Shown piece after piece: positions 12,785 to 30,764 of a DNA stretch of 53,376 nucleotides. The number at the start of each line of letters is the position of its first letter. Positions within the stretch are counted from its first letter, which is position 1. Origin of the DNA: an uncultured Alphaproteobacteria bacterium (lineage in GTDB: Bacteria > Pseudomonadota > Alphaproteobacteria > Rhizobiales > Ancalomicrobiaceae); NCBI GenBank assembly GCA_937864925.1, contig CALMFH010000240.1, positions 1 to 53,376 of the forward strand. Reading direction: 5' to 3'. The translations under genes were made by a program, and so were the position numbers. The notes beneath the pieces were generated by a model. It worked only from the letters and a program-made list of their open reading frames with translations. It was not told where the DNA came from and ran no database searches.

Positions 12785-13111
12785 TCAGGCGAACATCGAC
12801 ATGAACTTCGGCGCGAAGCTCAGGCCTCGCTTCAGGTCGCCCTTGAACTTGACCCGGCCGGTCATCACGGCGGCATAGGGCACCGTCCGACGTGCCCGTA
12901 GATCCAACCAGACCTTGAACGGTCCGATCACCGTGAAGTCGGCGTCGGTCTCGTCGTTGCGGCTCAGGATCGGCAGATCGTGTCGCGCGTCGATGAAGAG
13001 ATTGCCCATCCCTTCGAGGACGAACTTGACCGTGACGCCGAGGTTGCCGAGCGCCCGCAGGCGCCCCTCGAGATCGTCCGCGTATTCCTCGAAAGTCGTC
13101 GGTTCCGACAT
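12785..13111 (-). CDS. Stand-alone SCP2 sterol-carrier domain protein
   Basis: A 108-residue cytoplasmic protein made of a single SCP2-like domain: a helix (EEYADDLEGRLRAL), beta strands (VTVKFVLEG, NLFIDARHD, DADFTVIGPFKVWLDL) and the terminal segment VMTGRVKFKGDLKRGLSFAPKFMSMF, which closely matches the G-x-hydrophobic-K-x-x-G-D motif of SCP2 domains. Such domains bind fatty acyl-CoAs, sterols or other lipids. A thiolase of the SCPx type lies in the operon at 21883, so this protein may supply the carrier half that is fused to the thiolase in animal SCPx. Start chosen at 13111 (aggga site). A candidate operator lies about 115 bases upstream. Confidence 0.8.
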   Translation of the reverse strand: MSEPTTFEEYADDLEGRLRALGNLGVTVKFVLEGMGNLFIDARHDLPILSRNDETDADFTVIGPFKVWLDLRARRTVPYAAVMTGRVKFKGDLKRGLSFAPKFMSMFA

Positions 13112-13617
13112 GCCCGTTCTCCCTGTCGTTCGCGCCGAGACCTCGCGGGACTCGGTGGCGGTCACCGCCCTCGGAAAAGGGCTCGGCCGCGGCGGGGAAA
13201 AGGAAATTCGTATTCGAGGACGGGGCACCCAACCTTGGTATGGTGTCGATCGACCGCGGTCGGCCAGAATGCCCGGCAGAGACTGCTCGAGGGGCGGCGA
13301 GTATCGCGTGCGGGGGGAAGAAGGCGTGATCGAACCGGTGCGGCGAGGGTGAAGCTGCGCCATGCGCCGGTGCTGCGATCGCGTCTTTCGAAGCCGTCGC
13401 ATCGGGTTATGATCCGCCGGGTCTGTGCACGTCGCGGGGCGATCGGTGCGGCTCGGACCGGATGGGCGAGGCGGGCGACGTCGCCGAGGCGCGATGCCGG
13501 CCCGGATTCCGTCGGCCGAGGCTCGACGTCGCTCGACGATCCGCTCATCGGTCCGGATCGGCCGAAGCAAACGCCGGTGTCGCCGACCATCGATCGCAAG
13601 TGACGAGAAGAGTGCAG
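13112..13617. other. Intergenic region between SCP2 gene and LAL regulator
   Basis: 506 bases between the divergent SCP2 gene and the regulator gene. It holds the motif at 13227-13239 (listed separately). Frames running through it are Arg/Pro-rich and not protein-like. Nothing else is recognised. Confidence 0.45.
13227..13239 (-). promoter_or_regulatory. Candidate LAL-regulator box upstream of SCP2 gene
   Basis: On the minus strand this reads ACCAAGGTTGGGT. Its first nine bases are identical to bases 26588-26596 in the divergent promoter of the island, and GGGT follows in both, after one extra T at 26583-26601. It lies 115 bases upstream of the SCP2 gene and points toward it, and about 380 bases upstream of the regulator gene. 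Seen by eye; function inferred. Confidence 0.4.
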
Positions 13618-16260
13618 ATGCAGATCGTGAGGTTGGTTCAGAACACGCGTGATCGTCCCCCGAACACCCTGACACGCGTCAGACCGCCGCGTGAGCGTTC
13701 CGGAATGTTGCCGCGCCGTTCACTGGTCGACCGGGTGTTCGAAGCGGCCGATGCGAAGCGCATCACCCTGGTCACCGCACCGTCGGGCTATGGCAAGACG
13801 ACGCTTCTCGCCGCCACGTTCCGCCGCTTCGACGATCTCGGCATCCCGCACGTCTGGCTCGGCGTCAACGAAGCCGACCGCGACCCCCTGTGGATCGATC
13901 GCATCCTCCTCGGTCTGACGGCCGAACAACTCGGCATCGACAAGGAGGCCGACGAAGACTTCGTCGACTTCGTCCACCGCGCCTGTACGCAGCGGCCGAT
14001 CGTCGTCCTGATCGACAATTGGAATCACATCGAGAGCGAGGCGATCAACAGCTACTTCAACGGGATCCTGCGCGAGACGGCCGGTTCCGTCCACTTCGTC
14101 GTCTCCTCGCAGAAGACGCCGGGCTTCTTGCACGAGATCTACAAGCTCGAGGACGATTTCGCCTCGTTCAACGTGCGCGACCTGGCGTTCACGACGGCCG
14201 AAGCGATCGACTACCTGGCCTCGTCGGTCCCCGATGCCGACCCCGAAGCCTTGAGGGGACTGGTCGAGAAGACCGAGGGATGGCCCGCCGGGGTTCAACT
14301 GTTGCGCCTGGCGCTCAATCAGCTCGGCCAGCGCGCCGTCGACGAGCTGCAGTTCTCTGGCACTCGCGCCGACGTGGCCGACTACCTGAACAAGACGCTC
14401 TTCCGCCAATACTCCGGATCGCAGCGGCGCCTGCTGTGCAATCTTTCTGTCGTCGACTTCCTGAACGAGGAACTCGTCGTCTTCATCACCGGCGACCTTC
14501 GCGCCGCGGCGGAATACGCCGATCTGACCCGAGAGAACGTCTTTCTCATCGAGACCCGTGACGGATCGGCGGTCCATCGCTTCCATTCGCTGTTCCGCGA
14601 TTTCCTCCTGTCACAGCGGGTCAACGAGGAGACACTGCCGCCCGACGAGATCCTCCGGCGTGCCGCCGCCTGGCACGAGGGACGCGGTGAGACTTCGCAG
14701 GCGATCGTCTATTCGCTGCGCGCGGCCGATGGTCCGGCATCGAAGCGATTGCTCGAGCGCTATGCCGAGCTGCGTCTGGTCGGTGACGGCAATCTGATGC
14801 TGTTCTGCGAGTGGATCGCCTCGCTGTTGCGGCTCGGCGAGGCGCTGAGCCCGATCCTCGAACACTGGTACCGCTGGAGCCTCGTCTTCAGTGGCCGCTG
14901 GGCGGCGGCGCGCAACGTCCAGACGACCGATTCCAACGCGCGGACCGCCCTCGTCGATGCGGTCATCGCCGTCTTCGCCGACGATCAGGAGGCGCTCGTC
15001 GGCGCACTGGAGCGGTCCGCTGCGGGCGCCAACGCCAGCGACCCGTTCAATTTCGCCAGTACCCGGGCGCTCTCGGCGATCGCCGGCACCGCCCGTGGCG
15101 ACCTCAACGCCGCGTTCCAACACGTCATTCGCGCCAAGTTCTCGATCGAACAGACCGAGAGCGCCTTCGGCCGGACCTGGGCGCTGATCCTGATGGCGCT
15201 GGTCTGCCTCTTGCGTGGGCGCACCGACGAGGCGGAGACGGCGATCGCCGAAGCGGCCGATCTGGTGTCGAAACACTCCGGCTTCACCTCTCAGGTCGGA
15301 TGGGTGACGCAGACGGTCCGGGCGATCATCGCCCATCAGCGCGGCGACGATCGGGAGACCGCCGCCATCCTGTCGTCGCTGCGCCTGATCGAGGGCGAGC
15401 GCAATCTCCCCTTCGTCGCGGTGTGGACCGCCGCGATCGCCCGTTCACTCGGGCTCGATTGGGTCGGTCTCGGCGCGGAGAACCCTCCCAATTCGCCGGC
15501 GATCGCTCTCCTCGCCGAAGGGTTCGAGGTCGAAGCGGCCATGCAGCGCAGCACCGACGCCACCACGATCGGTCGTCTCCACGAGAAGTTCGAGATCCGG
15601 CTGGCCTCCTTCGCCGCGGACAATCCGAACCTGCAGGCCCATGGTTGGTGCCTGCGCGATCTCTCCGTGGCGCTCGGCTGCCGAGCGCTGATCTGGCGTG
15701 GCGAGTGCGATGTCGCCGTTCGCCGCCTCAATCAGGCGATCGGCGAGTGCCAACGGCAGGGGCGGGGCCTGATGCAGCAGAAGCTCACGCTGCTCAAAGT
15801 CGCCGCGATCCTCAGGCAGGGCAAGCAGGCGGCCGCCCTGCGCCTCCTCATCCAGACCGCCGAGACCGCGGTGCGTTCGAAACTCTTCCGCTTCTTCAAG
15901 GACGAGGAGAAGTTCGTCGGCGACCTCTTCCCGGCGCTCTTCGACGCCGGCGAAAGGGCGCCGCTCGGCAACGATCCCATCGGGTGGCGCCGGTTCGTCG
16001 CCTTCTTGCGCAACACCGATCCGGACGCTCAGGCGATCGACCGCAAGACCACCGAGGCGCTCGAGCACTTCACGCCCTCGGCCCGGGAAGCCGACATGTT
16101 GCAGTTCCTCGACGCCGGGCTGAGCAACAAGGAGATCGGCGAGCGCCTCGGCATCTCGGTGCCCACCGTCAAGTGGTATCTGCACAACCTGTTCTCGCGG
16201 ATGGGGGTGAAGAACCGCTCCAGCGCGGTGCGCACCGCCCGCGATCACCGGATGATCTGA
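13618..16260 (+). CDS. LuxR-family large ATP-binding (MalT/AlkS-type) activator
   Basis: An 880-residue transcription activator of the LAL class. Domains in order: N-terminal STAND-type ATPase with Walker A APSGYGKTT (about residues 54-62) and Walker B VVLIDNWN (about 129-136); a winged-helix/linker region with YSGSQRRLLCNLSVVDFL; a long TPR-like helical repeat region (about 400-800) likely to sense the inducer; and a C-terminal LuxR helix-turn-helix (LSNKEIGERLGISVPTVKWYLHNLF, KNRSSAVRTAR). Length and layout match MalT, AcoK and AlkS. The start at 13618 gives the usual short N-terminus before the LPRRSLVDRV segment; the frame is open further up but Arg-rich. Convergent with the catabolic operon, so it is the obvious candidate to control it. 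Confidence 0.92.
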   Translation: MQIVRLVQNTRDRPPNTLTRVRPPRERSGMLPRRSLVDRVFEAADAKRITLVTAPSGYGKTTLLAATFRRFDDLGIPHVWLGVNEADRDPLWIDRILLGLTAEQLGIDKEADEDFVDFVHRACTQRPIVVLIDNWNHIESEAINSYFNGILRETAGSVHFVVSSQKTPGFLHEIYKLEDDFASFNVRDLAFTTAEAIDYLASSVPDADPEALRGLVEKTEGWPAGVQLLRLALNQLGQRAVDELQFSGTRADVADYLNKTLFRQYSGSQRRLLCNLSVVDFLNEELVVFITGDLRAAAEYADLTRENVFLIETRDGSAVHRFHSLFRDFLLSQRVNEETLPPDEILRRAAAWHEGRGETSQAIVYSLRAADGPASKRLLERYAELRLVGDGNLMLFCEWIASLLRLGEALSPILEHWYRWSLVFSGRWAAARNVQTTDSNARTALVDAVIAVFADDQEALVGALERSAAGANASDPFNFASTRALSAIAGTARGDLNAAFQHVIRAKFSIEQTESAFGRTWALILMALVCLLRGRTDEAETAIAEAADLVSKHSGFTSQVGWVTQTVRAIIAHQRGDDRETAAILSSLRLIEGERNLPFVAVWTAAIARSLGLDWVGLGAENPPNSPAIALLAEGFEVEAAMQRSTDATTIGRLHEKFEIRLASFAADNPNLQAHGWCLRDLSVALGCRALIWRGECDVAVRRLNQAIGECQRQGRGLMQQKLTLLKVAAILRQGKQAAALRLLIQTAETAVRSKLFRFFKDEEKFVGDLFPALFDAGERAPLGNDPIGWRRFVAFLRNTDPDAQAIDRKTTEALEHFTPSAREADMLQFLDAGLSNKEIGERLGISVPTVKWYLHNLFSRMGVKNRSSAVRTARDHRMI

Positions 16261-16305
16261 CGGGGGGGCGCGCCCACCGCGAGCGAGGACCCGCGCCGCC
16301 GCGCC

Positions 16306-17451
16306 TCACAGCGCCCGGCCGATGATCTCCTTCATCACCTCGTTGGCGCCGCCGTAGATCTTCTGGATGCGGGCGTCGGCGTAGAGGCGGGCGATCGGGT
16401 ATTCGGCCATGTAGCCGTAGCCGCCGAAGAGCTGCAGGCACTTGTCCATCACCACGCACTGCTGCTCGGAACACCACCATTTGGCCATGTAGGCGGCCTG
16501 GGCGTCGAGGGTTCCGTCGAGCAGGCGCTGGATGCAGTCGTTGACGAAGCTACGCACCACGTGGGCGATGGTCGCCACCTCGGCCAATTCGAAGCGGGTG
16601 TTCTGCATCTCGAAGAGCGTCGTCCCGAACATTTTGCGCCCCTTGGTGTGTTCGAGCGTGAGGTCCAGCGCCAGGTCGATCGCCGCGGCGGCCGAGACGC
16701 CGAGCAGCATGCGCTCGTAGGGGAGCTGACTCATCAACTGGGCGAAGCCGGTGCCCTCGGTCTCACCGATCAGATGGTCGGCCGGCACCCGGACACCGTC
16801 GAAGAACAGCTCGGCGGTGTCGGAGGCGTGCTGGCCGAGCTTCTTCAAGAGGCGGCCGACGCGGAAGCCGGGAAGGTCCTCGGTCTCGAGCACGATCAAC
16901 GAGATGCCCTTGGCGCCGGCATCGCCGGTGCGCACCGCGACGACCAGCAGGTTCGCCGTCCGACCGTTGGTGATGAAGGTCTTGGCGCCGTCGATGACCC
17001 ACTCATCGCCGTCGCGGCGGGCGCGGGTGCGCAGTGCCTTCAGGTCCGACCCGCCGCTCGGCTCGGTCAGGGCGATGCCGGCGAGATAGTGCCCGCTCGC
17101 CAGCCCCGGTAGCCAACGCCGCTTCTGCTCTTCGGTGCCGTAATCGAGGATGTAGTGCGCGGCGATGGAATGGACGCCGGTGATCGCGGGCATCTCGATG
17201 CGGCCGAGTTCGTCCTGCACCACCAACTGGTAGGCGAGATCGGCACCGGAACCACCGTATTCGATCGGCATCTCGGGCAGCAGGAAGCCCAGTTCGCCGA
17301 AGGGGCGCCAGACCCCGCGGGGTACGTATCCCTGGCGCCGCCATTCTTCGAGCTTCGGCGCCATCTCCTTCTCGATCCAGCGACGGACCTCGCGGCGAAA
17401 GGCTTCGATGTCTTCGTCCATCCAGGGATGGCGATGGAGGCGGGGCATCAT
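16306..17451 (-). CDS. Acyl-CoA dehydrogenase
   Basis: An FAD flavoprotein that introduces an alpha,beta double bond into an acyl-CoA, passing electrons to ETF. 381 residues, usual length. Seen: ITEPSGGSD-like signature (IALTEPSGGSDLKALRTRA), WVIDGAKTFITNG, the KLGQHASDTAELFFDGVRVP segment, and a C-terminal IYGGANEVMKEIIGRAL. The position that carries the catalytic Glu in short/medium-chain enzymes is Gly here (YGG), while a Glu is present in LPYERMLLG, the location used by isovaleryl-CoA and long-chain enzymes. This fits branched or bulky substrates. Last gene of the minus-strand operon; start at 17451 (ATGATG), with a longer but less likely frame to 17490. Confidence 0.92.
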   Translation of the reverse strand: MMPRLHRHPWMDEDIEAFRREVRRWIEKEMAPKLEEWRRQGYVPRGVWRPFGELGFLLPEMPIEYGGSGADLAYQLVVQDELGRIEMPAITGVHSIAAHYILDYGTEEQKRRWLPGLASGHYLAGIALTEPSGGSDLKALRTRARRDGDEWVIDGAKTFITNGRTANLLVVAVRTGDAGAKGISLIVLETEDLPGFRVGRLLKKLGQHASDTAELFFDGVRVPADHLIGETEGTGFAQLMSQLPYERMLLGVSAAAAIDLALDLTLEHTKGRKMFGTTLFEMQNTRFELAEVATIAHVVRSFVNDCIQRLLDGTLDAQAAYMAKWWCSEQQCVVMDKCLQLFGGYGYMAEYPIARLYADARIQKIYGGANEVMKEIIGRAL

Positions 17452-17521
17452 GCGGCGGTTCCTCGTCAGGATATCGGGAGGGGGACGCACATGGGTTCCG
17501 GTCGACCGGCAGGGAAACGGG

Positions 17522-19081
<1,560 letters not shown>

Positions 19082-19099
19082 GGGTCGTCCTTCCTGGCG

Positions 19100-20143
19100 T
19101 CAGTCGGCGTCGAGGGGGAGGAAGCGCGGCGCGATCGCGCCGTAGCGGGCGCCGTCGGCGGTCGCCTCGAAGGTGCGGCGGGCGACGTTGTGGGGATGGT
19201 CGGGCGCCTCGGCGAGGCCGAGCACCGGGGCGAAACAGACGTCGGTGCCCTCGAGCAGGCGGCACCACGCGTCGCGGCTCTTCGAGCGGAAGACCGCCCG
19301 GAACCGTTCCTTCAGCGCCGGCCAGTCCGCGACCACGTGCTGGCGACGCGGATCGACGTCGGTCAGGCCGAGCCGCTGCAAGAGATCGGCCCAGAACTGC
19401 GGCTCGATCGCGCCGATGGTGACGAAGCGACCGTCGGCGCATTCGTAGACGTCGTAGAAGGGCGAGTCGTGGAACGGCGACGGCGTTTCACCGGCGAGTT
19501 GCCCGGCGGCATGGACCCACTGAGCCAGATTGCCGAGCATGGCGGCGACGTCGACGATCGCCGCGTCGACCACCCGCCCGCGCCCGGTCGTCCGAGCGTC
19601 GAGCAGAGCGCAGACGATGCCGAAGGCGAGGCCGAGTGCGCCGGGGGCGTCGCCCTGCGCCGTCGGTGGCACCACCGGGAGCCCGCCGGGGCGAGCGCCG
19701 AGCGACAACAGGCCGCTCAGCGCCACGTAGTTGAGGTCGTGACCGGCGGCGGCGGCCAGTGGTCCGCTCTGGCCCCAGCCGGTCATCCGGCCGTAGACCA
19801 GTTTCGGATTGCGGCGGGCGCAGTCGGTCGGACCGAGCCCCAACCGCTCCATGACACCTGGCCGCAAACCTTCGATCAGCACGTCGGCACCGGCGACGAG
19901 GTCCATCGCCGTCGCGCGGTCGGCGTCGGAGCGCTTGAGGTCGAGCATCACCCGGCGCTTGCCCCGCTCCAAGACGTCCGCTGCCCCCGAGCCGAGGAGC
20001 TCGGTGACGGTGCTCGCCTGGGGCCGGGCGATCAGCACCACCTCGGCCCCCATGCCGGCGAGCATGCGCCCGGCGAGCGGGCCGGGGCCGATGCTCTCGA
20101 ACTCGACGACGCGGACGCCGGCGAGAGGGGGAGCGAGGGCCAT
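19100..20143 (-). CDS. Alpha-methylacyl-CoA racemase-like class III CoA-transferase family
   Basis: 347 residues. The sequence follows alpha-methylacyl-CoA racemase (AMACR/Mcr) more closely than CoA-transferases: N-terminal LAGVRVVEFESIGPGPLAGRML, the AGHDLNYVALSGLL segment (catalytic His), an Asp in AQGDAPGALG, ARTTGRGRVVDAAIVD, and a FVTIGAIEPQFWADLL segment containing the third active-site acid. The enzyme would epimerise the alpha-methyl centre of a branched acyl-CoA so that the acyl-CoA dehydrogenase can act. A CoA-transferase function cannot be excluded from sequence alone. It is separated from the SDR gene by three bases, firmly in the operon. Confidence 0.85.
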   Translation of the reverse strand: MALAPPLAGVRVVEFESIGPGPLAGRMLAGMGAEVVLIARPQASTVTELLGSGAADVLERGKRRVMLDLKRSDADRATAMDLVAGADVLIEGLRPGVMERLGLGPTDCARRNPKLVYGRMTGWGQSGPLAAAAGHDLNYVALSGLLSLGARPGGLPVVPPTAQGDAPGALGLAFGIVCALLDARTTGRGRVVDAAIVDVAAMLGNLAQWVHAAGQLAGETPSPFHDSPFYDVYECADGRFVTIGAIEPQFWADLLQRLGLTDVDPRRQHVVADWPALKERFRAVFRSKSRDAWCRLLEGTDVCFAPVLGLAEAPDHPHNVARRTFEATADGARYGAIAPRFLPLDAD

Positions 20144-20146
20144 CGC

Positions 20147-20974
20147 TCAGATCCCCGTCAGACCGCCGGAGCAGATCAGCGTCTGGCCGCTGACGTAGTC
20201 GCTCTCGGGGATGCAGAACATGTAGACGGCGCCGGCCGCCTCGTCGGGGGTGCCGCCGCGGCCGAGCGGGATGGTCTTCTCGATCATCGCCATCAGGTCG
20301 GGGTTGACGCCGACCTTGATGTCGCGACCGTCGATGCTGGCGGTGGCGGCGGCATCGGCCGTCACCTCGGTCAGGCGGGTCTTGATGAAGCCGTAGGCGA
20401 CGCAGTTCACCGTGGTGGCGAGGCGGCCCCATTCCTTGGCCAGCGTCATGGTCATGCCGACGATGCCGGCCTTGGCGGTCGAGTAGTTGGTCTGGCCGGC
20501 GTTGCCGAAGAGGCCGGCGACCGAGGAGATGTTGACCACCTTGCGGACGACGCGGCGGCCGGCGTCGGCATCGGCCTTGGCCTGGGCTCGGATCACCGGC
20601 TGGGCGGCGCGCAGGATGCGGAACGGGGCGGTGAGATGGACGTCGAGCATGGCGTACCACTGCTCGTCGGTCATCTTCTGGATGACGTTGTCCCAGGTGT
20701 AGCCGGCGTTGTTGACGACGATGTCGAGGCCCTTGAAGGTCTCCACCGCGGTGCCGACGAAGCGTTCGGCGAAATCGGTCGCGGCGACCGAACCGAGACA
20801 GGCGACGGCTTCGCCGCCGGCGGCGCGGATCGCCTCGACCACTTCCATCGCCGGATCGGCGTCGAGATCGTTGACGACGACGCGCGCTCCTTCGGAGGCC
20901 AGTTTCAGGGCGATGGCGCGACCGATGCCGCGACCCGAACCACTGACGAGCGCCACTCTTCCTTCGAGTTTCAT
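20147..20974 (-). CDS. Short-chain dehydrogenase/reductase (3-hydroxyacyl-CoA dehydrogenase-like)
   Basis: 275 residues, classical SDR. Cofactor loop SGSGRGIGRAIALKLA, adenine-pocket NDLD acidic residue (favouring NAD), NNAG motif, and catalytic Ser/Tyr/Lys in VNISSVAG and TNYSTAKAG. The insertion ADADAGRRVVRK before the catalytic Ser is common in SDRs of steroid and branched-chain acyl-CoA degradation. In this operon it most likely oxidises the 3-hydroxyacyl-CoA produced by the MaoC hydratase. Start ATG at 20974, with aaggcaatccc upstream. Confidence 0.9.
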   Translation of the reverse strand: MKLEGRVALVSGSGRGIGRAIALKLASEGARVVVNDLDADPAMEVVEAIRAAGGEAVACLGSVAATDFAERFVGTAVETFKGLDIVVNNAGYTWDNVIQKMTDEQWYAMLDVHLTAPFRILRAAQPVIRAQAKADADAGRRVVRKVVNISSVAGLFGNAGQTNYSTAKAGIVGMTMTLAKEWGRLATTVNCVAYGFIKTRLTEVTADAAATASIDGRDIKVGVNPDLMAMIEKTIPLGRGGTPDEAAGAVYMFCIPESDYVSGQTLICSGGLTGI

Positions 20975-23067: not shown

Positions 23068-23128
23068 GGGATTGCTCCTGGGTTGAAGAGATCGGGATAC
23101 CGGCCTCTCGCGAGGCCCGGCCGAGGCG

Positions 23129-24619
23129 TCATTTCCGACGCCCGAGGAAGAGCGAGACGCTCAGCTTCTGGACGACGTTGCCGTAAGGCGGGTGGAACAG
23201 GCCGATCGGGAACCACGGCCGCTCGCGGAAGACGGCGCGCGAGTGCGACAACGAGCGGAAGCCCTCGACGCCGTGGTAGCTGCCGGTGCCGGCGTTGCCG
23301 ATGCCGCCGAAGGGCAGGTCGCTCTGCATGGCGTGCCAACCCCAATCGTTGAGGGTGACGCCACCGGAATGGGTGGCGTCGAGGACGCGGCGGCATTCGC
23401 CGTCGTCGTGGCCGAACCAGTAGAGCGCCAACGGCCGATCGCGCTCGACGACGTGGGTGATCGCCTCGTCGATGGTGTCGTAGGCGACGACCGGTAGGAC
23501 CGGACCGAAGATCTCCTCCTGCATCACCGCCATGTCGGGGGTCGGGGCCAGGACGAGATGGAGGGGAATGCGTGGACCGCTCGCCCCCTCTTCGCAGGCG
23601 ATCACCGTCGCGCCCTTGTCGCGGGCGTCCCGGATCAGGCGGTGGATCCGCGCCGCGTGGCTCGGGGTCACCACGCTGGTGTATTCGGCGTTCCCGACGC
23701 AGCCGGTCGGGTACATCCGCCGAAAATGGGCGCGGACCGCCTCGACGAAGGCGCCGACCATCTCCCGTGGTACCAGGGCATAGTCGGGGGCGATGCAGAT
23801 CTGACCGCAGTTGAAGCTCTTGCCGTGGGTGATCCGTGCCGCCGCATCGGTGATCTTGGCGCTGCGCGAGACGATCGCCGGCGACTTGCCCCCCAGTTCC
23901 AGCGTCACCGGCGTCAGGTTCTTCGCCGCCGCCGCCATCACCCGGCGACCGACGCCGGGCGAACCGGTGAAGATCAGATGGTCGAAAGCCAGCCCGGAGA
24001 AGGCCTCGGCCACCGTGACGTCGCCGCCGAAGACCGCGACCTCGTCCGTGGCGAAGGCCTCGGCCAGCATCGTCCGTAACGCCGCGGTCGTCGCCGGGGT
24101 GTATTCCGACATCTTGATCATCGCCCTGTTGCCGGCGGCGAGCGCCGCGACCAGCGGCCCGAGCGACAGGTAGGCCGGGAAATTCCATGGCACGACGATG
24201 CCGACGACGCCTTTCGGCTGGTGTTCGACCCGCGCCGTGTTGGGCAGGAACAGGAGCTCGACGCCGCGCCGCTCCGGCTTCATCCAGCGCTTCACGTGCG
24301 AAATGGCGTGGCGGATGTTGAGTACCACGCCGAGTACGTCGGCGATCCGGCTCTCGGTCGGCGATCGACCGCCGAAGTCGGCCGAGGTCGCGGCGCAGAT
24401 CGCATCCTGATGGGCGAGCAGCGCCTTCAACAGCCGACGCAGGCGGTCACGACGTTCCGCCGCGCTCGGCAGCGGCGCGGCGCGATAGGTCGCCCGTTGG
24501 CGACGCAGCACGTCGGTCAGGAGCTCGGCCGACGGCTGGTCGAAGCCGAAACCGGACGGGAGATCCGCCGGCGCCGCCGTCGTCGCGGCGGGGGTGAGAT
24601 CGAGGGCGATGCCGTTCAT
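23129..24619 (-). CDS. Aldehyde dehydrogenase, coniferyl-aldehyde-dehydrogenase-like
   Basis: A 496-residue NAD(P)-dependent aldehyde dehydrogenase. Catalytic Glu241 in LELGGKSPAIV and Cys275 in NCGQICIAPDY; oxyanion Asn in VPWNFPAYLSLGPLVAALAAGN; EEIFGPVLPVV near residue 380. The SFNCGQICIAPDYALVP arrangement and a hydrophobic, basic C-terminal tail (FHPPYGNVVQKLSVSLFLGRRK, here split for length) are typical of the CalB/ALDH3 branch that oxidises bulky, allylic or aromatic aldehydes. It would convert the aldehyde made by the GMC enzyme to the acid for the acyl-CoA ligase. Confidence 0.91.
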   Translation of the reverse strand: MNGIALDLTPAATTAAPADLPSGFGFDQPSAELLTDVLRRQRATYRAAPLPSAAERRDRLRRLLKALLAHQDAICAATSADFGGRSPTESRIADVLGVVLNIRHAISHVKRWMKPERRGVELLFLPNTARVEHQPKGVVGIVVPWNFPAYLSLGPLVAALAAGNRAMIKMSEYTPATTAALRTMLAEAFATDEVAVFGGDVTVAEAFSGLAFDHLIFTGSPGVGRRVMAAAAKNLTPVTLELGGKSPAIVSRSAKITDAAARITHGKSFNCGQICIAPDYALVPREMVGAFVEAVRAHFRRMYPTGCVGNAEYTSVVTPSHAARIHRLIRDARDKGATVIACEEGASGPRIPLHLVLAPTPDMAVMQEEIFGPVLPVVAYDTIDEAITHVVERDRPLALYWFGHDDGECRRVLDATHSGGVTLNDWGWHAMQSDLPFGGIGNAGTGSYHGVEGFRSLSHSRAVFRERPWFPIGLFHPPYGNVVQKLSVSLFLGRRK

Positions 24620-24704
24620 CCTGTTGTCTCTCCGAGGCCTGGTTCGATGACCATCGTCCGTATTCGCCGGCGCACCGGCGGGGCTTTCCTCGCCGACGTC
24701 CGAT

Positions 24705-26330
24705 TCACGACGCCCGGTCCAGGGCCGCGGGTGCGAGCGGCGCCCGGCCGAGGATGTGATCGGCGATCTTCTCGGCGATCATGATGGTGGGGGCGTTGGT
24801 GTTGCCGCCGACCAGCGTCGGCATGACCGAGGCGTCGACGACACGCAGACCGGTCACCCCGCGGACGCGGCAGTCGCCGTCGACCACCGCGGCGGGGTCG
24901 TCGTCGGTGCCCATCTTGGCGGTGCCGACCGGGTGGTAGATCGACTCCGCCGTGGCTCGGATCCAGGCGTCGATCTCGTCGTCGCCGACGACCTTCGGAC
25001 CCGGTTCGATCTCGGTGTCGAAATAGGGCTCCATCGCCGTCTGACGGAAGATGCGGCGGGCAGCGCGAACCGCGTCGCGCAGGACGATGCGGTCGGATGC
25101 GGCCGAGAGATAGTTCGGCTGGATGACCGCATGATCGCGCGGGTCACGGGACTTCAGGCCGATCCAGCCCCGGCTCTCGGGCCGCAACTGGCAGGCATGG
25201 AGCGCGAATCCGTGGCCCGGGTGCTTGCGCCGGGCGTGGTCGGAGAGGGCCGCCGCCATGAAGTGGAACTGGACGTCGGGCGCCTCGAGTTCCGGCCGGG
25301 TGCGGATGAAGCCGCCGGCTTCGACGCCGTTGGAGGCGCCGAGCCCGCCGCGGGTGGCGAAGTAGCGCAGGCCGTTGAGCGCCATCGACCAGGGGTTGAG
25401 CTGGCCGTTGAGGGTGATCGGCCGGCGGCAGGTCGCCATCACCAGACAGTCGAGATGGTCCTGGAGGTTCCGCCCGACGCCGGGCCGATGGGCGACGACG
25501 GGGATGCCGAAGCGCCCGAGCGCCTCGCCGTCGCCGACCCCGGACAGCTGCAGGAGCTGTGGCGTGTTGATGGTGCCGCCGCAGAGCAGGATTTCGCGCC
25601 GCGCCCGCACCTCATGGGTCCGGCCGCCCTGGATGTATTCGACCGCGACGGCCTTCGTCCCCTCGAAGACGACGCGGGAGACCAGCGCCTCGGTCTCGAC
25701 CCTGAGGTTCGGCCGCTTCGCCGCCGGGCGCAGATATGCCCGCGAAGCGCTGGAACGAACGCCGTCCTTCACGGTGAACTGATAGAAGCCGACGCCTTCC
25801 TGGCTCACGCCGTTGAAGTCGGCGGTGCGCGGGTATCCCGCCTCGACACCGGCCGCGACGAAGGCGTCGAACAGCGGATTGCCGGAGACCGGATCGGAGA
25901 CGCCGAGCGGACCGTCGCCGCCGTGGAAGGTGTCGGCGCCGCGGACGTTGCCCTCGGAGCGCCGGAAGTAGGGAAGGACGTCGGCGAAGCTCCAGCCCGT
26001 CAGTCCGAGCTGGCGCCAGTGGTCGTAGTCGCTCGCATGACCGCGGATGTAGATCATGCCGTTGATCGACGACGACCCGCCGAGGACCTTGCCACGCGGC
26101 CAGTAGAGGTTGCGGCCGTTCAGGTGTTCCTGGGGAGCGGTGTGATAGTACCAGTTGGCGAACCTACCGGAGATCAGTTGGATCACGGCGCCCGGCATCA
26201 TGAAGAGCGGGCTACGGTCTCGGCCGCCGGCTTCGAGCAGCAGGACGCGATGGGACGGATCGGCGGAGAGGCGGTCGGCGAGGACGGAGCCCGCGCTGCC
26301 CGCGCCGACGATGACGAAGTCGAAGTCCAT
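24705..26330 (-). CDS. GMC-family FAD alcohol dehydrogenase (AlkJ/choline-dehydrogenase-like)
   Basis: A 541-residue flavoprotein of the GMC family. FAD-binding VIVGAGSAGSVLADRL at residues 5-20, the PRGKVLGGSSSINGMIYIRG motif (GMC signature 1), LCGGTINTPQLLQLSG (signature 2), and the catalytic IYHPVGTAKMG His plus the GGNTNAPTIMIAEKIAD Asn. It would oxidise the primary alcohol formed by the P450 to an aldehyde, as AlkJ does in alkane pathways. First gene of the minus-strand operon. Start at 26330 chosen for gggagga nine bases upstream; the frame is open to 26408 but those residues precede the FAD motif without family likeness. Confidence 0.92.
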   Translation of the reverse strand: MDFDFVIVGAGSAGSVLADRLSADPSHRVLLLEAGGRDRSPLFMMPGAVIQLISGRFANWYYHTAPQEHLNGRNLYWPRGKVLGGSSSINGMIYIRGHASDYDHWRQLGLTGWSFADVLPYFRRSEGNVRGADTFHGGDGPLGVSDPVSGNPLFDAFVAAGVEAGYPRTADFNGVSQEGVGFYQFTVKDGVRSSASRAYLRPAAKRPNLRVETEALVSRVVFEGTKAVAVEYIQGGRTHEVRARREILLCGGTINTPQLLQLSGVGDGEALGRFGIPVVAHRPGVGRNLQDHLDCLVMATCRRPITLNGQLNPWSMALNGLRYFATRGGLGASNGVEAGGFIRTRPELEAPDVQFHFMAAALSDHARRKHPGHGFALHACQLRPESRGWIGLKSRDPRDHAVIQPNYLSAASDRIVLRDAVRAARRIFRQTAMEPYFDTEIEPGPKVVGDDEIDAWIRATAESIYHPVGTAKMGTDDDPAAVVDGDCRVRGVTGLRVVDASVMPTLVGGNTNAPTIMIAEKIADHILGRAPLAPAALDRAS

Positions 26331-26452
26331 CGAAACATTTCCTCCCGCCGCCGAATTCGATCGGCCTCGCATCCGCGCTTCACCGTCGGGCCTGCCGCGT
26401 CGGTTCATCGCCGGCAGACTTCAATCGATCGCCACCGACGAATGACCCGTCG

Positions 26453-26465
26453 AAAGTTTGGGCGG
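26453..26465 (+). promoter_or_regulatory. Second, weaker candidate box (AAAGTTTGGGCGG)
   Basis: Shares AAG-TTTGGG with the palindrome at 26583-26601, 130 bases away, and lies 123 bases upstream of the GMC dehydrogenase start. Could serve the minus-strand operon. Similarity is short, so this is tentative. Confidence 0.25.
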
Positions 26466-26582
26466 TGGAGCGATCGTTTCGGACGGTGGTCGGCGACCGA
26501 TCGGTCGCGACCGGTCGGCCGAGGGCGTCGCCGCCCGCCCCGTCGTCGGCAACGGGGCCGGACCATCCGATCCGAGAAAGAA

Positions 26583-26601
26583 ACCCAACCAAGGTTTGGG
26601 T
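26583..26601. promoter_or_regulatory. Candidate operator: ACCCAA-N7-TTGGGT palindrome
   Basis: The perfect six-base inverted repeat ACCCAA / TTGGGT flanks CCAAGGT. The nine bases ACCAAGGTT recur upstream of the SCP2 gene, and CCAACC-N-A-N4-TGGG recurs (opposite strand) upstream of the P450 gene. It sits 57 bases before the ferredoxin reductase start, a position suitable for an activator. LAL regulators such as MalT bind short asymmetric boxes, often in opposed or tandem pairs, which fits. Confidence 0.5.
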
Positions 26602-26657
26602 CCTCGACGCGTCGGCTCGCTTAAGCAGGGAGGAACGAGGTCGAACGGGAGCCGGGA

Positions 26658-27905
26658 ATGCGGATCGAGGGGACGAGGGGTTCGGTGGTGATCGTCGGGG
26701 CCGGCCATGCCGGCGGGACCGTGGCGATGGAATTGAGGGCGGCCGGTCATGGCGCACCGGTGACCATCGTCGGCGACGAGCCGCACGTTCCCTATCAGCG
26801 GCCGCCGCTGTCCAAGGCCTTCCTCAAGGGCGGCCTGCCCGAGGAGAAGCTCGAGCTCCGGCCGCGCGCGTGGTACGCGACCCACGACGTCGACCTGCGG
26901 CTGGGTGAGCCGGTCTATGCGATCGATCGCGCCGCACGGAGGCTGCGGCTCTGCGGCGGCGAGACGCTCGCCTACGACCACTTGGTACTCGCCACCGGGG
27001 TGCGGCCGGCACGGCTCGCCGTTCCGGGGGCGAACCTCGAAGGTGTCCACCATCTCCGTGGCATCGCCGACGCGCGGCGGCTCGCGACCGATCTCGGCGG
27101 CGCCGGACGGCTGGTGGTGGTCGGTGCCGGCTTCACCGGGCTCGAAGTGGCCGCATCCGCCGCGACGCTCGGTTGCGCCGTGACCCTGGTGGCGCGCGGC
27201 CACAAGGTGCTGAGCCGGGTGGCGAGCGCCCCGGTGGCGACCTTCCTGCGCGCCCGTCACGAGGCCGCTGGCGTCGCCTTCCGCTTCGGCGCGGACGTCG
27301 CGGCCTTCCTCGGCGACGGCGATCGGGTCGCGGGCGTGCGTCTCGGCGACGGCGAGGTGCTTGCCTGCGATCGCGTTCTGGTCGCGGTCGGGGCCGAGGC
27401 CAACGACGACCTCGCGCGCCGTGCCGGCCTCGCCTGCGCCGACGGCGGCATCGTCGTCGACGGGAGCGGCCGCACCTCGGACCCGGCGATCTTCGCCATC
27501 GGTGACGTCTCGGTGCGGCCGCTGCCCTATCTCGGCGGACGTCTCGTCCGACTGGAGAGCGTCCACAATGCGTTGGAACAGGCCCGGATCGCCGCTGCGG
27601 TGATCGCCGAGACACCGCCGCCACGGCTCGAGCCGCCGTGGTTCTGGTCGGATCAGTACGACCTCAAACTACAGACGGTGGGGCTCGTGGCCGAGGCCGA
27701 CGACCTCGTCCTGCGCGGCGACCCGGAGATCGGCCGCTTCGCCGTCTTCCATCTCGCCGGCGATCGGCTCAGGGCGGTCGAGGCGATCAACGCGCCGCTC
27801 GATTTCGCCATCGGCAAGCAAATGGTCGCCAAGGACGCGCCGATCTCGCGCGACGCCCTGGCCGACCCGTCCGTGAACATCCGCGCCGTCGCGACCGCGC
27901 ACTGA
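26658..27905 (+). CDS. FAD-dependent ferredoxin reductase (putidaredoxin-reductase-like)
   Basis: A 415-residue NADH:ferredoxin oxidoreductase that supplies electrons to the ferredoxin-P450 pair. FAD dinucleotide fold VVIVGAGHAGGTVAMELR at residues 10-27, PYQRPPLSK, the ATGVRPARL segment, NAD-binding LVVVGAGFTGLEVAAS, and the second FAD contact DPAIFAIGDVS, then RLESVHNALEQARIAA and WFWSDQYDLKLQTVG, all diagnostic of the putidaredoxin/terpredoxin/rubredoxin reductase group. ATG at 26658 follows gggagccggg. It heads the P450 transcription unit and is 15 bases from the ferredoxin gene. Confidence 0.94.
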   Translation: MRIEGTRGSVVIVGAGHAGGTVAMELRAAGHGAPVTIVGDEPHVPYQRPPLSKAFLKGGLPEEKLELRPRAWYATHDVDLRLGEPVYAIDRAARRLRLCGGETLAYDHLVLATGVRPARLAVPGANLEGVHHLRGIADARRLATDLGGAGRLVVVGAGFTGLEVAASAATLGCAVTLVARGHKVLSRVASAPVATFLRARHEAAGVAFRFGADVAAFLGDGDRVAGVRLGDGEVLACDRVLVAVGAEANDDLARRAGLACADGGIVVDGSGRTSDPAIFAIGDVSVRPLPYLGGRLVRLESVHNALEQARIAAAVIAETPPPRLEPPWFWSDQYDLKLQTVGLVAEADDLVLRGDPEIGRFAVFHLAGDRLRAVEAINAPLDFAIGKQMVAKDAPISRDALADPSVNIRAVATAH

Positions 27906-27920
27906 CCCCGGGGAACGGAA

Positions 27921-28244
27921 ATGGCCAAGATCACATATGTTTCATCCGCGGGTTGCGAACGGATCGTCGAGGTGCCGACCGGCACCAACGTCATGGACGG
28001 CGCATTGCGCAACGACATCGAGGGCATCATCGGCGACTGCGCCGGTGGCTGCACCTGTTCGACCTGCCACGTCTACGTCGAGGAATCCTGGGTCGCGCGG
28101 CTCGCTCCGCCGATCGACATCGAGACCAGTATGCTCGAACTCGCTGCGGCGCCGTTGCGTCCGACGTCGCGGTTGGCATGTCAGATCGTCGTTCGCGACG
28201 ACCTCGACGGCCTGGTGGTCCACATCCCTTCGACCCAGCGCTGA
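27921..28244 (+). CDS. [2Fe-2S] ferredoxin, adrenodoxin/terpredoxin type
   Basis: A 107-residue soluble electron carrier. Cluster ligands are in the adrenodoxin-type spacing C-x5-C-x2-C followed by a distant Cys: DCAGGCTCSTCHVYV around residues 39-49 (an additional Cys is present within the x5 stretch) and LACQIVV near residue 86. It would carry electrons from the adjacent reductase to the P450. Ribosome site ggggaacgga immediately upstream. The close spacing to the reductase and the P450 downstream make the functional assignment firm. Confidence 0.93.
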   Translation: MAKITYVSSAGCERIVEVPTGTNVMDGALRNDIEGIIGDCAGGCTCSTCHVYVEESWVARLAPPIDIETSMLELAAAPLRPTSRLACQIVVRDDLDGLVVHIPSTQR

Positions 28245-28298
28245 TCTCACGGACGGCGCCCTACCTCACGGGTGGGGCCGAATTCGTCGAATCCCATC

Positions 28299-28315
28299 TT
28301 TGGGTTGGTTGCTTT
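28299..28315 (-). promoter_or_regulatory. Candidate box between ferredoxin and P450 genes
   Basis: The plus strand reads TTTGGGTTGGTTGCTTT. Read on the minus strand from 28308 to 28292, CCAACC-N-A-N4-TGGG aligns with the same positions of the palindrome at 26583-26601. It lies about 90-105 bases upstream of the P450 start, in the only sizeable gap (159 bases) of the P450 transcription unit, suggesting an internal regulated promoter. Match is partial. Confidence 0.3.
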
Positions 28316-28403
28316 CGCGCTCCGATAGATACGCTTCCCCACAGCTGAAGCTTCGCGCCGAGGCAGGGAAACGCACGACGGAGATCGTGGAGGAGCATGG
28401 ACC

Positions 28404-29687
28404 ATGGACAATCTGAAGATTCCCGTCGACCTCGTGGCGCCGATCTTCTCGCCGGCAGCTTACGGAAATCGCGACAAGATCCACGAGATATTCACGACGC
28501 TGCGGCGTGACTATCCGCTCTCCATCGCCGAAGTGCCCGGATTCGATCCGCACTGGATCGTCACCAAATACGACGATCTGCGCGAGATCACCCGTCAGGA
28601 CGACAAGTTCCTGAGTTCGGTGCGCTCCAAGACGCTGGTGTCGCAGGCGGCGGAAGCGTTCATCCGCGACTTCACCGGCGGTACCCCGAACGTCTTCAAG
28701 ACGCTCGTCAACATGGACGAGCCGGAGCACACCGACTACCGAAACGTCACCGCCCAGCACTTCATGCCGCAGTCGGTGGCGACGCTGGAGCCGTTGATCC
28801 GCAAGATCGCCAAGCGCTACGCCGACAAGCTGGCGTCGATGGCGCCGGCCTGCGATTTCGCCTGGGATCTCGGGTTCCACTATCCGCTCGAGGTGATCAT
28901 GACGATCATCGGCGTGCCGGAAGAAGACCACGCGATGATGCTGCGGCTCACTCAGTGGGTGTTCAACTACACCGATCCGGAGCTCGGTCGGCCGGGCGCC
29001 GACCCGAGTGATCTCTCCGAGGTCGCCAAGACCTGGATGATCGCATTCCTCGAGTTCAAGGACTACTACGACCGAATGGTCGAGGATCGGCTGGCCTGTC
29101 CGCGCGAAGACATCGCCACGGTGTTGGCGCACGGCAAGGTCAACGGCTGCCCGATGGAGAACGTCGCGCTGATCTCCTATTTCGCCATCGCCTCGACCGC
29201 CGGACACGACACCACCGCCGCCTCGACCTCGATGGCGATGTGGAAGCTCGCCGAGGATCCGACGCTGCTCGAACGTCTCCAGGAGAATCCGAAGCTCATC
29301 CCCGGCTTCGTCGAGGAGGCGATCCGCTGGGCGACGCCGATCCAGATCTTCGTGCGCTCGGCCGCCGAGGACTACGTGCTGCGCGGCCGGCAGATCAAGA
29401 AGGGCGATCTGCTCTACCTCTCCTACGTCTCGGCCAACCGCGACGAGGACATCTTCGACGAGCCTTTCGCCTTCAAGCCGGAGCGCTCGCCCAACCGCCA
29501 CGTCGGATTCGGCTACGGCGGCCACATCTGCCTCGGTCAGCACCTCGGGCGGATGGAGATGCGGATCTTCTGGGAGGAGGTCATTCCGCGGCTGAAGTCG
29601 GTGGAGATGGCGGGCGAGGGACGCATGGCGCAGGCCGAGACGGTGAGCGGTCCCAAACACGTGCCGATCCGCTTCGAGATGACGTGA
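28404..29687 (+). CDS. Cytochrome P450, CYP108 (P450terp)-like
   Basis: A 427-residue soluble class I P450. Haem-binding motif [19 protein letters not shown] with the thiolate Cys at residue 376; I-helix oxygen-activation motif [11 protein letters not shown] near residue 265; ExxR in FVEEAIRW near residue 304. Segments such as [54 protein letters not shown] and [13 protein letters not shown] follow P450terp (CYP108A1, alpha-terpineol hydroxylase) very closely as I remember that sequence, well beyond general P450 similarity. It would hydroxylate a methyl group of a terpenoid or similar alicyclic compound. Ribosome site ggaggag; the ATG at 28397 is out of frame. Confidence 0.92.
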
Positions 29688-29697
29688 GGAGGCGGTG

Positions 29698-29877
29698 ATG
29701 GCTGACGACGGCTGGCGGATCTGGCAGTGCGGGATCTGCGGTGACCTCTACGACGAGGCCGCGGGCATGCCCGACCAGGGGATCCCTCCCGGCACCCGGC
29801 TGGAGGACCTGCCGGACACTTGGATCTGCCCGATGTGCGGCAGTCCGAAGGGCGTCTTCATTCCCTACGAGGGGTGA
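29698..29877 (+). CDS. Rubredoxin
   Basis: A 59-residue iron-sulfur-less (single Fe) electron carrier. Both C-x2-C knuckles are present: [13 protein letters not shown] and [13 protein letters not shown], with the conserved [15 protein letters not shown] between them, length typical. ATG at 29698 has AGGAGG five bases upstream and lies 10 bases after the P450 stop, so it is co-transcribed with the P450. The P450 already has a ferredoxin, so the partner of this rubredoxin is unclear; the reductase upstream belongs to a group that also includes rubredoxin reductases. Confidence 0.93.
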
Positions 29878-29900
29878 CGAGCGACCGGACACGGAGCGAG

Positions 29901-29920
29901 GGCCGATCCGCGGATCGGCC
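29901..29920. terminator. 20-base perfect palindrome, probable bidirectional terminator
   Basis: GGCCGATCCG followed directly by its complement CGGATCGGCC, then TTCGTCGTTC. It lies between the convergent rubredoxin and crotonase genes, where a terminator serving both strands is expected. Confidence 0.6.
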
Positions 29921-29987
29921 TTCGTCGTTCGCGGCGGACCGCTCGCGTCGGACGGGCGCGCCCCGGTGCGGCGTGCCCGCCCGTCTT

Positions 29988-30764
29988 TCACCGCCCGCGG
30001 AAGACCGGCTTGCGGCGTTCGATGTAGGCGGTCGCGCCTTCGCGCAGATCGTCGCTGACGAAGGCGCGGGTCTGCAGAGTCGCCTCGAGGTCGAGGGTGG
30101 CGGCGAGCGGTGCTGCCCAGGCGTCTTCCAACTGGCGTTTGATCATGGCGATGGCGAGCGGCGGGCCGGCGGCGAGGGCTTCGGCGATCGCCATGGCCTC
30201 GTCGAAGAGCATCTCGTCGTCGACGCATTTCCAGATCAGCCCCCACTCCGCCGCGGTCGCGGCCGAGAGGGCCTCGCCGGTGAGCGCCAGGGCGCGGGCC
30301 CGCGTCGCGCCGATGGCGCGCTGGAAGAACAGCGAGGTGCCGCCGTCGAGGACGGCGCCGAGCTTGGCGAAACTCAGGACGAATTTCGCCGACCGCGCCG
30401 CGACGACGATGTCGCCGGCGAGCGCGATGCCACAACCCGCCCCTGCCGCCGGGCCATTGACGGCGACGACGATCGGGATCGGTGCGGCCCGCATCTTCTC
30501 GATCAACGGCGACACCGTTTGCCGCATCGCATCACCCACCTCGGCACCGGCTGCGAACACCGCCGGATCGAACCTCGCCCCGGCGCAGAAGCCCTTGCCG
30601 GCGCCGGTGAGAACGATGGCGCGCACGTCGGGCATGTTCAGGACGCGTTCGAGGGTCTCATCGATCGCGCGGACCTTTTCCCAGTCGAGGGCGTTCAACC
30701 GCTCGGGATCGTCGAGAGTCAGGATCGCGATCGATCCACGGACGTCGTAGCGAATGCCGGTCAT
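29988..30764 (-). CDS. Enoyl-CoA hydratase/isomerase, PaaG-like
   Basis: A 258-residue crotonase-fold protein. Oxyanion-hole segments FCAGARFDP and VNGPAAGAGCGIALAGDIV are present. The hydratase Glu pair is absent: the first site is in a SFAKLGAVLD context and the second position carries Asp140 (LGAVLDGGTS), as in PaaG, the ring-1,2-epoxyphenylacetyl-CoA isomerase that also shifts double bonds. The C-terminal LREGATAYIERRKPVFRGR is standard. An isomerase or ring-opening role in cyclic acyl-CoA degradation fits the neighbouring genes better than simple hydration. It is convergent with the P450 unit, so regulated separately. Confidence 0.88.
   Translation of the reverse strand: MTGIRYDVRGSIAILTLDDPERLNALDWEKVRAIDETLERVLNMPDVRAIVLTGAGKGFCAGARFDPAVFAAGAEVGDAMRQTVSPLIEKMRAAPIPIVVAVNGPAAGAGCGIALAGDIVVAARSAKFVLSFAKLGAVLDGGTSLFFQRAIGATRARALALTGEALSAATAAEWGLIWKCVDDEMLFDEAMAIAEALAAGPPLAIAMIKRQLEDAWAAPLAATLDLEATLQTRAFVSDDLREGATAYIERRKPVFRGR

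What the first reader, a model, noticed from the sequence alone, without database searches (positions are those of the whole stretch)
12785..30764. CYP108-type P450 island with alk-like regulation and full branched/cyclic acyl-CoA oxidation set
Seen: a P450 with strong CYP108 (P450terp) resemblance, its ferredoxin and reductase, then across a divergent promoter GMC alcohol dehydrogenase, aldehyde dehydrogenase, acyl-CoA ligase, acyl-CoA dehydrogenase, two-subunit MaoC hydratase, SDR, SCPx thiolase and an alpha-methylacyl-CoA racemase, with a LAL regulator at one end. Known: alk systems use a LAL activator (AlkS), AlkJ, AlkH, AlkK and rubredoxin with a membrane hydroxylase. Inference: this is an alk-like circuit in which the hydroxylase is a CYP108 P450, and the substrate is an alicyclic methyl compound such as a terpineol-type monoterpenoid, processed through its CoA ester. 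The racemase and SCPx thiolase suggest an alpha-methyl or side-chain branch step not described for terpineol.
Basis: partly seen in the sequence, partly recalled or inferred. Interest (0 to 1): 0.75.

Follow-up and report, generated by a model that had tools for sequence, protein, structure and literature searches.

The report
P450–rubredoxin island for branched hydrocarbons
A bacterium carries a block of 17 genes that probably oxidises the end of a branched, oily molecule with a cytochrome P450 and then burns it piece by piece; the P450 comes with an unusual electron carrier, a rubredoxin, that many relatives of this P450 also have next door.

Summary
The genes described are there, intact, at the stated coordinates. 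The island is larger, about 11,583-31,300, with no counterpart at this place in the relatives compared. Two genes were missed: an OmpW-family porin (AlkL family) at the left end, and a rubredoxin starting 10 nt after the P450 stop. By domain family the main alk functions are present (LAL regulator, rubredoxin, flavin reductase, GMC alcohol dehydrogenase, aldehyde dehydrogenase, ligase, OmpW), with a P450 in place of AlkB, joined to a full alpha-methylacyl-CoA oxidation set (racemase, dehydrogenase, two-subunit hydratase, SDR, SCP2-thiolase, SCP2). The P450 is P450terp-like (41% identity) but forms its own supported clade. Among related loci 45 of 88 have a rubredoxin beside the P450, 36 of 37 in one alphaproteobacterial clade; relatives of the window's ferredoxin and reductase occur in 2 of 89. 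The terpineol reading is weak: the ferredoxin is not terpredoxin-like, and racemase plus SCP2-thiolase fit an acyclic methyl-branched (isoprenoid or sterol-side-chain) substrate better. Substrate, regulation and use of the rubredoxin are inferred, not tested.

The parts
11583..31300 (.). island with no counterpart at this place in the family relatives compared (left limit after phosphoglucomutase, right limit before cobO)
   Evidence: in the stretches fetched (L169-L186) alignments of 4 relatives stop at 11577-11582 and of 6 relatives start at 31251-31308; only paralogue hits at 69-73% (L171) in between
11944..12648 (-). OmpW-family outer-membrane protein (AlkL family), from the first ATG of the ORF 11944-12678
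   Evidence: PF03922 76.6 bits, cut-off 24
12785..13111 (-). stand-alone SCP2 domain protein
   Evidence: PF02036 43.6 bits
13705..16260 (+). LAL/MalT-type ATP-dependent LuxR regulator (longest ORF starts 13462)
   Evidence: GerE, TPR_MalT, Walker A APSGYGKT; no match at 1e-100 in 356 other genomes of the class sample
16306..17490 (-). acyl-CoA dehydrogenase (called start 17451)
   Evidence: PF00441, PF02771, PF02770
17522..19081 (-). acyl-CoA ligase
   Evidence: PF00501 279.2 bits; NF004837 521.9 bits, cut-off 476
19100..20143 (-). alpha-methylacyl-CoA racemase
   Evidence: MCR 1x74 268.6 bits, GHDLNY / GD / GAIEPQF aligned
20147..20974 (-). SDR, probable 3-hydroxyacyl-CoA dehydrogenase
   Evidence: PF13561 155.6 bits
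21004..21474 (-). MaoC hydratase subunit with GDHNPIH
   Evidence: PF01575 66 bits, motif
21425..21868 (-). FAS1-like dehydratase (MaoC-N) partner subunit
   Evidence: PF13452 146.7 bits
21883..23067 (-). SCP2-thiolase (SCPx-type), SCP2 domain not fused
   Evidence: 6hsj SCP2-thiolase type-1 439.8 bits; NF006102 675.2 bits, cut-off 436
23129..24619 (-). aldehyde dehydrogenase
   Evidence: PF00171 269.4 bits
24705..26408 (-). GMC alcohol dehydrogenase (AlkJ-like role inferred; called start 26330)
   Evidence: PF00732, PF05199; NF002550 765.8 bits, cut-off 605
26658..27905 (+). NADH-dependent flavin reductase of the putidaredoxin-reductase family
   Evidence: 3lxd 289.9, 3fg2 284.9 (labelled putative rubredoxin reductase), putidaredoxin reductase 272.9 bits
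27921..28244 (+). [2Fe-2S] ferredoxin, putidaredoxin-like
   Evidence: 3hui 101.6, putidaredoxin 94.8, terpredoxin 69.1 bits
28404..29687 (+). cytochrome P450, P450terp-like, own clade
   Evidence: 1cpt 381.1 bits; tree; [16 protein letters not shown]
29698..29877 (+). rubredoxin, 10 nt after the P450 stop with GAGGAGG upstream
   Evidence: PF00301 69.5 bits; PDB rubredoxins; pairing in relatives
29988..30764 (-). enoyl-CoA hydratase/isomerase; a 58% homologue follows the thiolase-MaoC-SDR-ACAD block in L157
   Evidence: PF00378 194.8 bits

Best explanation
An acquired catabolic island. An OmpW porin lets a hydrophobic methyl-branched compound in (inferred). The P450 hydroxylates a terminal methyl group of an isoprenoid-like chain (inferred from the downstream genes). 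GMC and aldehyde dehydrogenase take the alcohol to the acid, the ligase makes the 2-methylacyl-CoA, the racemase brings it to the configuration the dehydrogenase accepts, and dehydrogenase, two-subunit hydratase, SDR and SCP2-thiolase remove propionyl-CoA (enzyme families shown by homology; reaction order inferred). The LAL protein is the likely activator (inferred). The P450 comes from a lineage that is often paired with rubredoxin, and here receives electrons from the reductase by rubredoxin, by the ferredoxin, or both (inferred).
For: Gene set complete, motifs present in the 12 proteins checked. Racemase with the MCR residues aligned and SCP2-thiolase type 1 together fit alpha-methyl acyl-CoA. 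The order thiolase, MaoC-N, MaoC, SDR, ACAD recurs in 6 of the 13 thiolase loci fetched from other families of the order (L154, L155, L157, L159, L160 with an extra gene, L161; five of the six from one genus; L156's contig ends after MaoC-N), and in an own paralogue block on G000:C50, L167. One of the best plasmid matches of the thiolase, 78%, lies beside acyclic-terpene-utilisation and biotin-carboxylase genes in Sulfitobacter. Rubredoxin beside the P450 in 45 of 88 loci; 46 of 51 rubredoxin hits in 1.68 Mb within 2 kb of the P450; 36 of 37 rows in one clade, 7 of 10 in the window's clade. A LAL gene diverges from a P450-rubredoxin pair in L024, Novosphingobium. M. tuberculosis RubB passes electrons from FdR or FprA to CYP124, CYP125 and CYP142 (passages seen in PMC11133467, and PMC9430723).
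Against: No relative of the P450 has this gene order; none of the nine nearest rows (L017-L025) shows a comparable cluster, though some lie on short contigs, so kin do not tell the substrate. By sequence the P450 is closer to P450terp, CYP108D1 and P450tol than to the methyl-branched lipid hydroxylase CYP124 or to CYP125. Three of the ten rows of the window's clade have no adjacent rubredoxin, among them L017, the row of highest identity. The window itself has a ferredoxin and a reductase, so the rubredoxin may be unused; a loose cysteine-spacing pattern also found possible ferredoxins within 3 kb in 8 of 89 loci. An operator-like motif failed its control.
Confidence: 0.5

Rival explanations
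1. One reading: a CYP108 P450terp-like system for an alicyclic methyl compound such as terpineol, limonene or p-cymene, hydroxylated on a ring methyl and degraded through a cyclic CoA ester.
For: P450 best solved match is P450terp, 381 bits; 41.1% identity; the enoyl-CoA hydratase at 29988 scores best with the ring isomerase model PaaG, below its cut-off (243 of 345); the ACAD scores with cyclohexanecarboxyl-CoA dehydrogenase models, far below cut-off.
Against: Own clade apart from P450terp/P450tol; ferredoxin not terpredoxin-like; rubredoxin pairing; racemase and SCP2-thiolase have no obvious place in ring opening (general knowledge); no ring hydrolase among the island genes annotated.
Confidence: 0.2
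2. Sterol or other steroid side-chain degradation: the P450 acts as CYP125 does on C26, then the same racemase, hydratase and SCPx-thiolase logic shortens the side chain.
For: SCP2 protein, SCPx thiolase, two-subunit hydratase and racemase are all used there (general knowledge); CYP125 is the next solved family after the CYP108 group.
Against: No steroid ring gene among the genes annotated (most of the window right of 39 kb was not annotated, and the rest of the genome was not searched for such genes); the P450 is far closer to P450terp than to CYP125 (381 bits against 247 for CYP125MRCA, by its name a reconstructed ancestor, and 185 for 5dqn).
Confidence: 0.15
3. The rubredoxin is only a passenger of the P450 gene; the working chain is reductase, ferredoxin, P450, as in ordinary class I systems.
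For: Reductase, ferredoxin and P450 follow each other on one strand; putidaredoxin-like ferredoxin with intact cluster ligands.
Against: Rubredoxin lies next to this P450 in many genera: 45 of 88 loci, against relatives of the window's ferredoxin and reductase in 2 of 89; ligands intact and a good ribosome-binding site here.
Confidence: 0.35

Closest known systems
alk system of Pseudomonas putida GPo1 (alkBFGHJKL, alkST)
   Same: same list of functions by domain family: OmpW (AlkL), LAL regulator (AlkS type), GMC (AlkJ), ALDH (AlkH), ligase (AlkK), rubredoxin (AlkG), flavin reductase (AlkT role). Roles of AlkK, AlkL, AlkS and AlkT: passage in PMC8918992; the rest recalled
   Different: hydroxylase is a soluble P450, not AlkB; a ferredoxin is added; a dedicated alpha-methylacyl-CoA oxidation set follows; one-domain rubredoxin; none of the Alk proteins themselves was compared
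P450terp (CYP108A1) and its terp operon
   Same: nearest solved P450, 41% identity; P450, ferredoxin, reductase and dehydrogenases together (operon content recalled)
   Different: separate clade; ferredoxin not terpredoxin-like; rubredoxin, LAL, OmpW and branched acyl-CoA genes here
Mycobacterial CYP125/CYP124 with RubB
   Same: P450s that oxidise terminal methyl groups (recalled); racemase and SCPx-type chemistry (recalled); rubredoxin feeds P450s in vitro there (PMC11133467, PMC9430723 passages)
   Different: M. tuberculosis rubB lies with alkB and rubA (PMC9430723); here the rubredoxin follows its P450; the P450s are distant relatives
CYP153 alkane hydroxylases
   Same: P450 with ferredoxin and reductase for hydrocarbon attack (PMC8918992 and PMC12472514 passages)
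   Different: different P450 family; no rubredoxin partner or branched acyl-CoA set described in the passages seen

Membership tests
CYP108 | at least about 40% identity to a family member (nomenclature rule, recalled) | tested here: met
   41.1% to P450terp, but 37.1% to CYP108D1 and 36.5% to P450tol: borderline
CYP108 | groups with named CYP108 members to the exclusion of other CYP families | tested here: inconclusive
   own 100/100 clade; P450terp/P450tol in another 100/100 clade; one distant outgroup row only, long-branch warnings
P450terp system | terpredoxin-type ferredoxin partner | tested here: not met
   3hui 101.6, putidaredoxin 94.8, terpredoxin 69.1 bits
alk system | membrane di-iron hydroxylase AlkB in the cluster | tested here: not met
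   none among the island genes called and annotated; an AlkB-like fusion lies elsewhere in the genome
alk system | rubredoxin | tested here: met
   PF00301 69.5 bits
alk system | AlkT-type rubredoxin reductase | tested here: inconclusive
   nearest 3lxd, 3fg2 (labelled putative rubredoxin reductase) and putidaredoxin reductase; AlkT not compared
alk system | OmpW porin, GMC, ALDH and ligase by domain family | tested here: met
   the named Alk proteins themselves were not compared
alk system | AlkS orthology of the LAL regulator | not tested
   architecture only; AlkS sequence not at hand
alpha-methylacyl-CoA racemase | similarity to MCR with catalytic His, Asp, Glu in place (residue roles recalled) | tested here: met
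   268.6 bits; GHDLNY, GD and GAIEPQF aligned
SCPx | SCP2-thiolase domain with its cysteine and GHPLGATG | tested here: met
SCPx | SCP2 domain fused to the thiolase | tested here: not met
   SCP2 is a separate gene, 12785-13111
steroid side-chain degradation | steroid ring-degradation genes in the genome | not tested
   not searched

The most novel reading that the evidence does not exclude
A large group of CYP108-like P450s in Alpha- and Gammaproteobacteria is natively driven by a dedicated rubredoxin, and this island is an alk-like system in which the place of AlkB is taken by such a P450-rubredoxin pair, coupled to branched acyl-CoA oxidation.
Probability: 0.4. Interest if true: 0.68.

Novelty: new variant of a known kind. 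Interest (0 to 1): 0.5.

Why it matters
Native redox partners of many bacterial P450s are unknown, and bacterial P450s usually use a ferredoxin and a reductase (PMC8918992 passage). A P450-rubredoxin gene pair found in many genera gives a cheap, direct test of rubredoxin as a native P450 donor; the only case I saw in print is M. tuberculosis RubB in vitro. The island is also a complete candidate route for methyl-branched hydrocarbons, for which I know of few defined bacterial gene sets.

Tried and rejected
Shared operator: I noticed ACCCAACCWWGGTWTGG at 13227-13243 and 26583-26599 in two divergent intergenic regions; the pattern search gave 4 matches (2 exact, each also read on the other strand with 3 mismatches) against 0.07 expected, but the pattern was made from the two sites. 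A control scoring identity plus dyad symmetry over both regions gave 26 for this pair and 28 for the best pair, which is another one; 150 shuffles gave a mean of 25.0, largest 29, with 3 at 28 or more. Rejected as evidence.

Sigma-70 promoters and terminators: none above chance in 12000-31400 (0 found against 1.0; 7 against 8.0).

Same gene order elsewhere: not found. Apart from P450 and rubredoxin, window cluster proteins at 44% or more near a P450 relative occur in ones or twos: L072 (ferredoxin 50, reductase 51%), L085 (thiolase 66%), L091 (ALDH 45%), L034 (GMC 44%) (88 loci). Plasmid neighbourhoods L009-L011 were unlike; L012 has no annotated feature in the stretch. Of four racemase kin stretches opened, two (L189, L191) show ACAD-racemase-ligase-thiolase-ECH-SDR blocks without an annotated P450, L190 differs, L192 has no annotation.

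Clean empty site: not found. Phosphoglucomutase and cobB lie on different contigs in all six relatives of the cobB search, so the island may also sit at a rearrangement point. G+C of the island is not unusual.

AtuA in the own genome: no match, but no control rang either, so it shows nothing. The first regex for rubredoxin found 36 of 89 loci and missed some; a profile replaced it. An AlkB motif regex was faulty; the motif was read by eye.

The rubredoxin profile was seeded from the same loci. The tree took one P450 per locus (93 rows: 89 loci, 3 typed references, 1 outgroup); a second P450 in L014 was left out. The genome search scores only a few candidates per genome (2-5). Not done: structure prediction, fold searches, Rfam, viral scans, steroid ring genes.

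Full report
What is there. The window is one whole contig (G000:C240) of a 4.15-Mb draft genome in 290 contigs, 97% complete, with two P450 hits. Every gene named in the finding was found with its family and position. By direction the units are: SCP2 then OmpW (-); LAL (+); GMC, ALDH, thiolase, MaoC-N, MaoC, SDR, racemase, ligase, ACAD (-); reductase, ferredoxin, P450, rubredoxin (+); enoyl-CoA hydratase (-): 17 genes. In the 12 proteins checked the motifs are present and no stop interrupts them.

What was missed. A 59-residue rubredoxin (29698-29877) starts 10 nt after the P450 stop, with GAGGAGG in front. An OmpW protein, the family of AlkL (recalled), closes the left end. Both strengthen the alk analogy.

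Extent. In the stretches fetched, DNA of relatives from the same family aligns with the window up to 11577-11582 in four genomes (G004, G008, G010, G014) and again from 31251-31308 in six (G004, G005, G008, G009, G010, G014); in between only paralogue hits at 69-73% appear (L171). The P450 is in 1 of 15 genomes of the family, the own one, at 1e-60, and in 4 of 396 other genomes of the order at 1e-80, best 46%. The LAL protein has no match at 1e-100 in 356 other genomes of the class sample; one at 42% over part of its length lies in L162, an order-level genome, some 5 kb from a 70% thiolase. G+C is not unusual. The nearest P450s are in other families and in Gammaproteobacteria, so acquisition is likely but not shown.

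The P450. Best solved match P450terp (381 bits), then 3tkt (CYP108D1, name recalled; 313) and P450tol (310), then CYP125MRCA (247). A tree of 93 rows puts the window with these nine at 100/100, apart from P450terp, P450tol and L012 (100/100) and from CYP108D1 (with L092, 96/93); it carries long-branch warnings.

The rubredoxin link. A profile seeded from the loci finds 51 rubredoxin hits in 1.68 Mb; 46 lie within 2 kb of the P450. By locus: 45 of 88 (one short locus without a hit left out, five short loci counted because positive; with complete flanks only, 40 of 83). Twenty-seven are downstream on the same strand, 25 of them 5-38 nt from the end of the P450 match to the start of the profile hit; 18 are divergent upstream. 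On the tree: 36 of 37 rows in a Caulobacter/Hyphomonas/Parvibaculum clade, 7 of 10 in the window's clade, 2 elsewhere; the label needs 6 changes against 31.2 in shuffles. Relatives of the window's ferredoxin (1e-5) and reductase (1e-30) occur only in the window and L072, and L072 has no rubredoxin; by that measure the window is the only one of 89 loci with both kinds. A looser cysteine-spacing pattern gave possible ferredoxins within 3 kb in 8 of 89 loci. The own genome has one complete rubredoxin, here, and one fragment that seems cut by a contig end.

Print. Rubredoxin as P450 donor is known from M. tuberculosis RubB in vitro (passages in PMC11133467 and PMC9430723; the original paper, Sushko et al. 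2021, not seen). Nine searches of the library for rubredoxin with P450, CYP or redox terms, or for CYP108 or CYP108G listed no paper that by title or abstract describes this pairing. PMC12472514 holds both 'CYP108' and 'rubredoxin', but those places were not among the passages I was shown; in PMC8197338 rubredoxin does not occur. This is weak evidence of absence.

The acyl-CoA set. The CaiB-family protein is an alpha-methylacyl-CoA racemase (268.6 bits to MCR). The thiolase matches SCP2-thiolase type 1 at 440 bits. The block thiolase, MaoC-N, MaoC, SDR, ACAD recurs in 6 of the 13 thiolase loci fetched from other families of the order, thiolase 71-74% identical, five of the six from one genus; in L157 an enoyl-CoA hydratase 58% identical to the window's follows. 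A paralogous block sits in the own genome (L167). On a Sulfitobacter plasmid the 78% thiolase and an SDR lie beside acyclic-terpene-utilisation and biotin-dependent carboxylase genes. With the racemase in the same unit, the natural reading is removal of propionyl-CoA from a 2-methylacyl-CoA, as made by oxidising the end of an isoprenoid chain (inference).

Judgement. Shown: the genes, their integrity, absence of the island at this place in the relatives compared, P450-rubredoxin linkage. Inferred: substrate class, order of steps, regulation, which carrier feeds the P450. Against: no conserved neighbourhood for this P450, three of ten clade rows without rubredoxin including the row of highest identity (L017), P450 nearer to terpene/aromatic oxidisers than to CYP124 or CYP125, operator motif not significant.

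Noticed in passing
L196 (own genome, contig C36): A long open frame joins a ferredoxin-like part, a flavin reductase-like part and an AlkB-like membrane hydroxylase (HELTH, HVYGHH, NYMEHYG read by eye), resembling the fused AlkB class mentioned in PMC8918992. So the host may have an alkane hydroxylase that needs no rubredoxin.
   Followed up: partly
window 4000-9128: Second stretch largely not aligned with relatives (one 339-base piece at 70% in L169), with an MFS transporter and proteins without Pfam match.
   Followed up: no
L194 (own genome, contig C10): A second rubredoxin, cut off after its first cysteine motif, apparently by the contig end.
   Followed up: no
L024:1-4010: Novosphingobium contig with a LAL regulator divergent from a P450 (59%) and rubredoxin: perhaps a small version of the same circuit.
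   Followed up: partly
L162:16210-18819: A LAL gene (42% over part of its length) some 5 kb from a thiolase 70% identical to the window's, with acyl-CoA and PhaC-type genes and a phenol-MetA-type protein between and around.
   Followed up: partly
L017, L018: MerR-type regulators diverge from the P450 gene in two close relatives.
   Followed up: no
L009, L010: CYP108-like P450s at 43-44% on plasmids typed conjugative of Cupriavidus taiwanensis and Paraburkholderia phymatum, the latter about 10 kb from nif genes.
   Followed up: no
window 31293-35755: Cobalamin genes (cobO, cobB-type, cbiB) flank the island; methylmalonyl-CoA mutase needs B12 for propionyl-CoA (recalled), but they are backbone genes shared with relatives, so the neighbourhood is probably chance.
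   Followed up: partly
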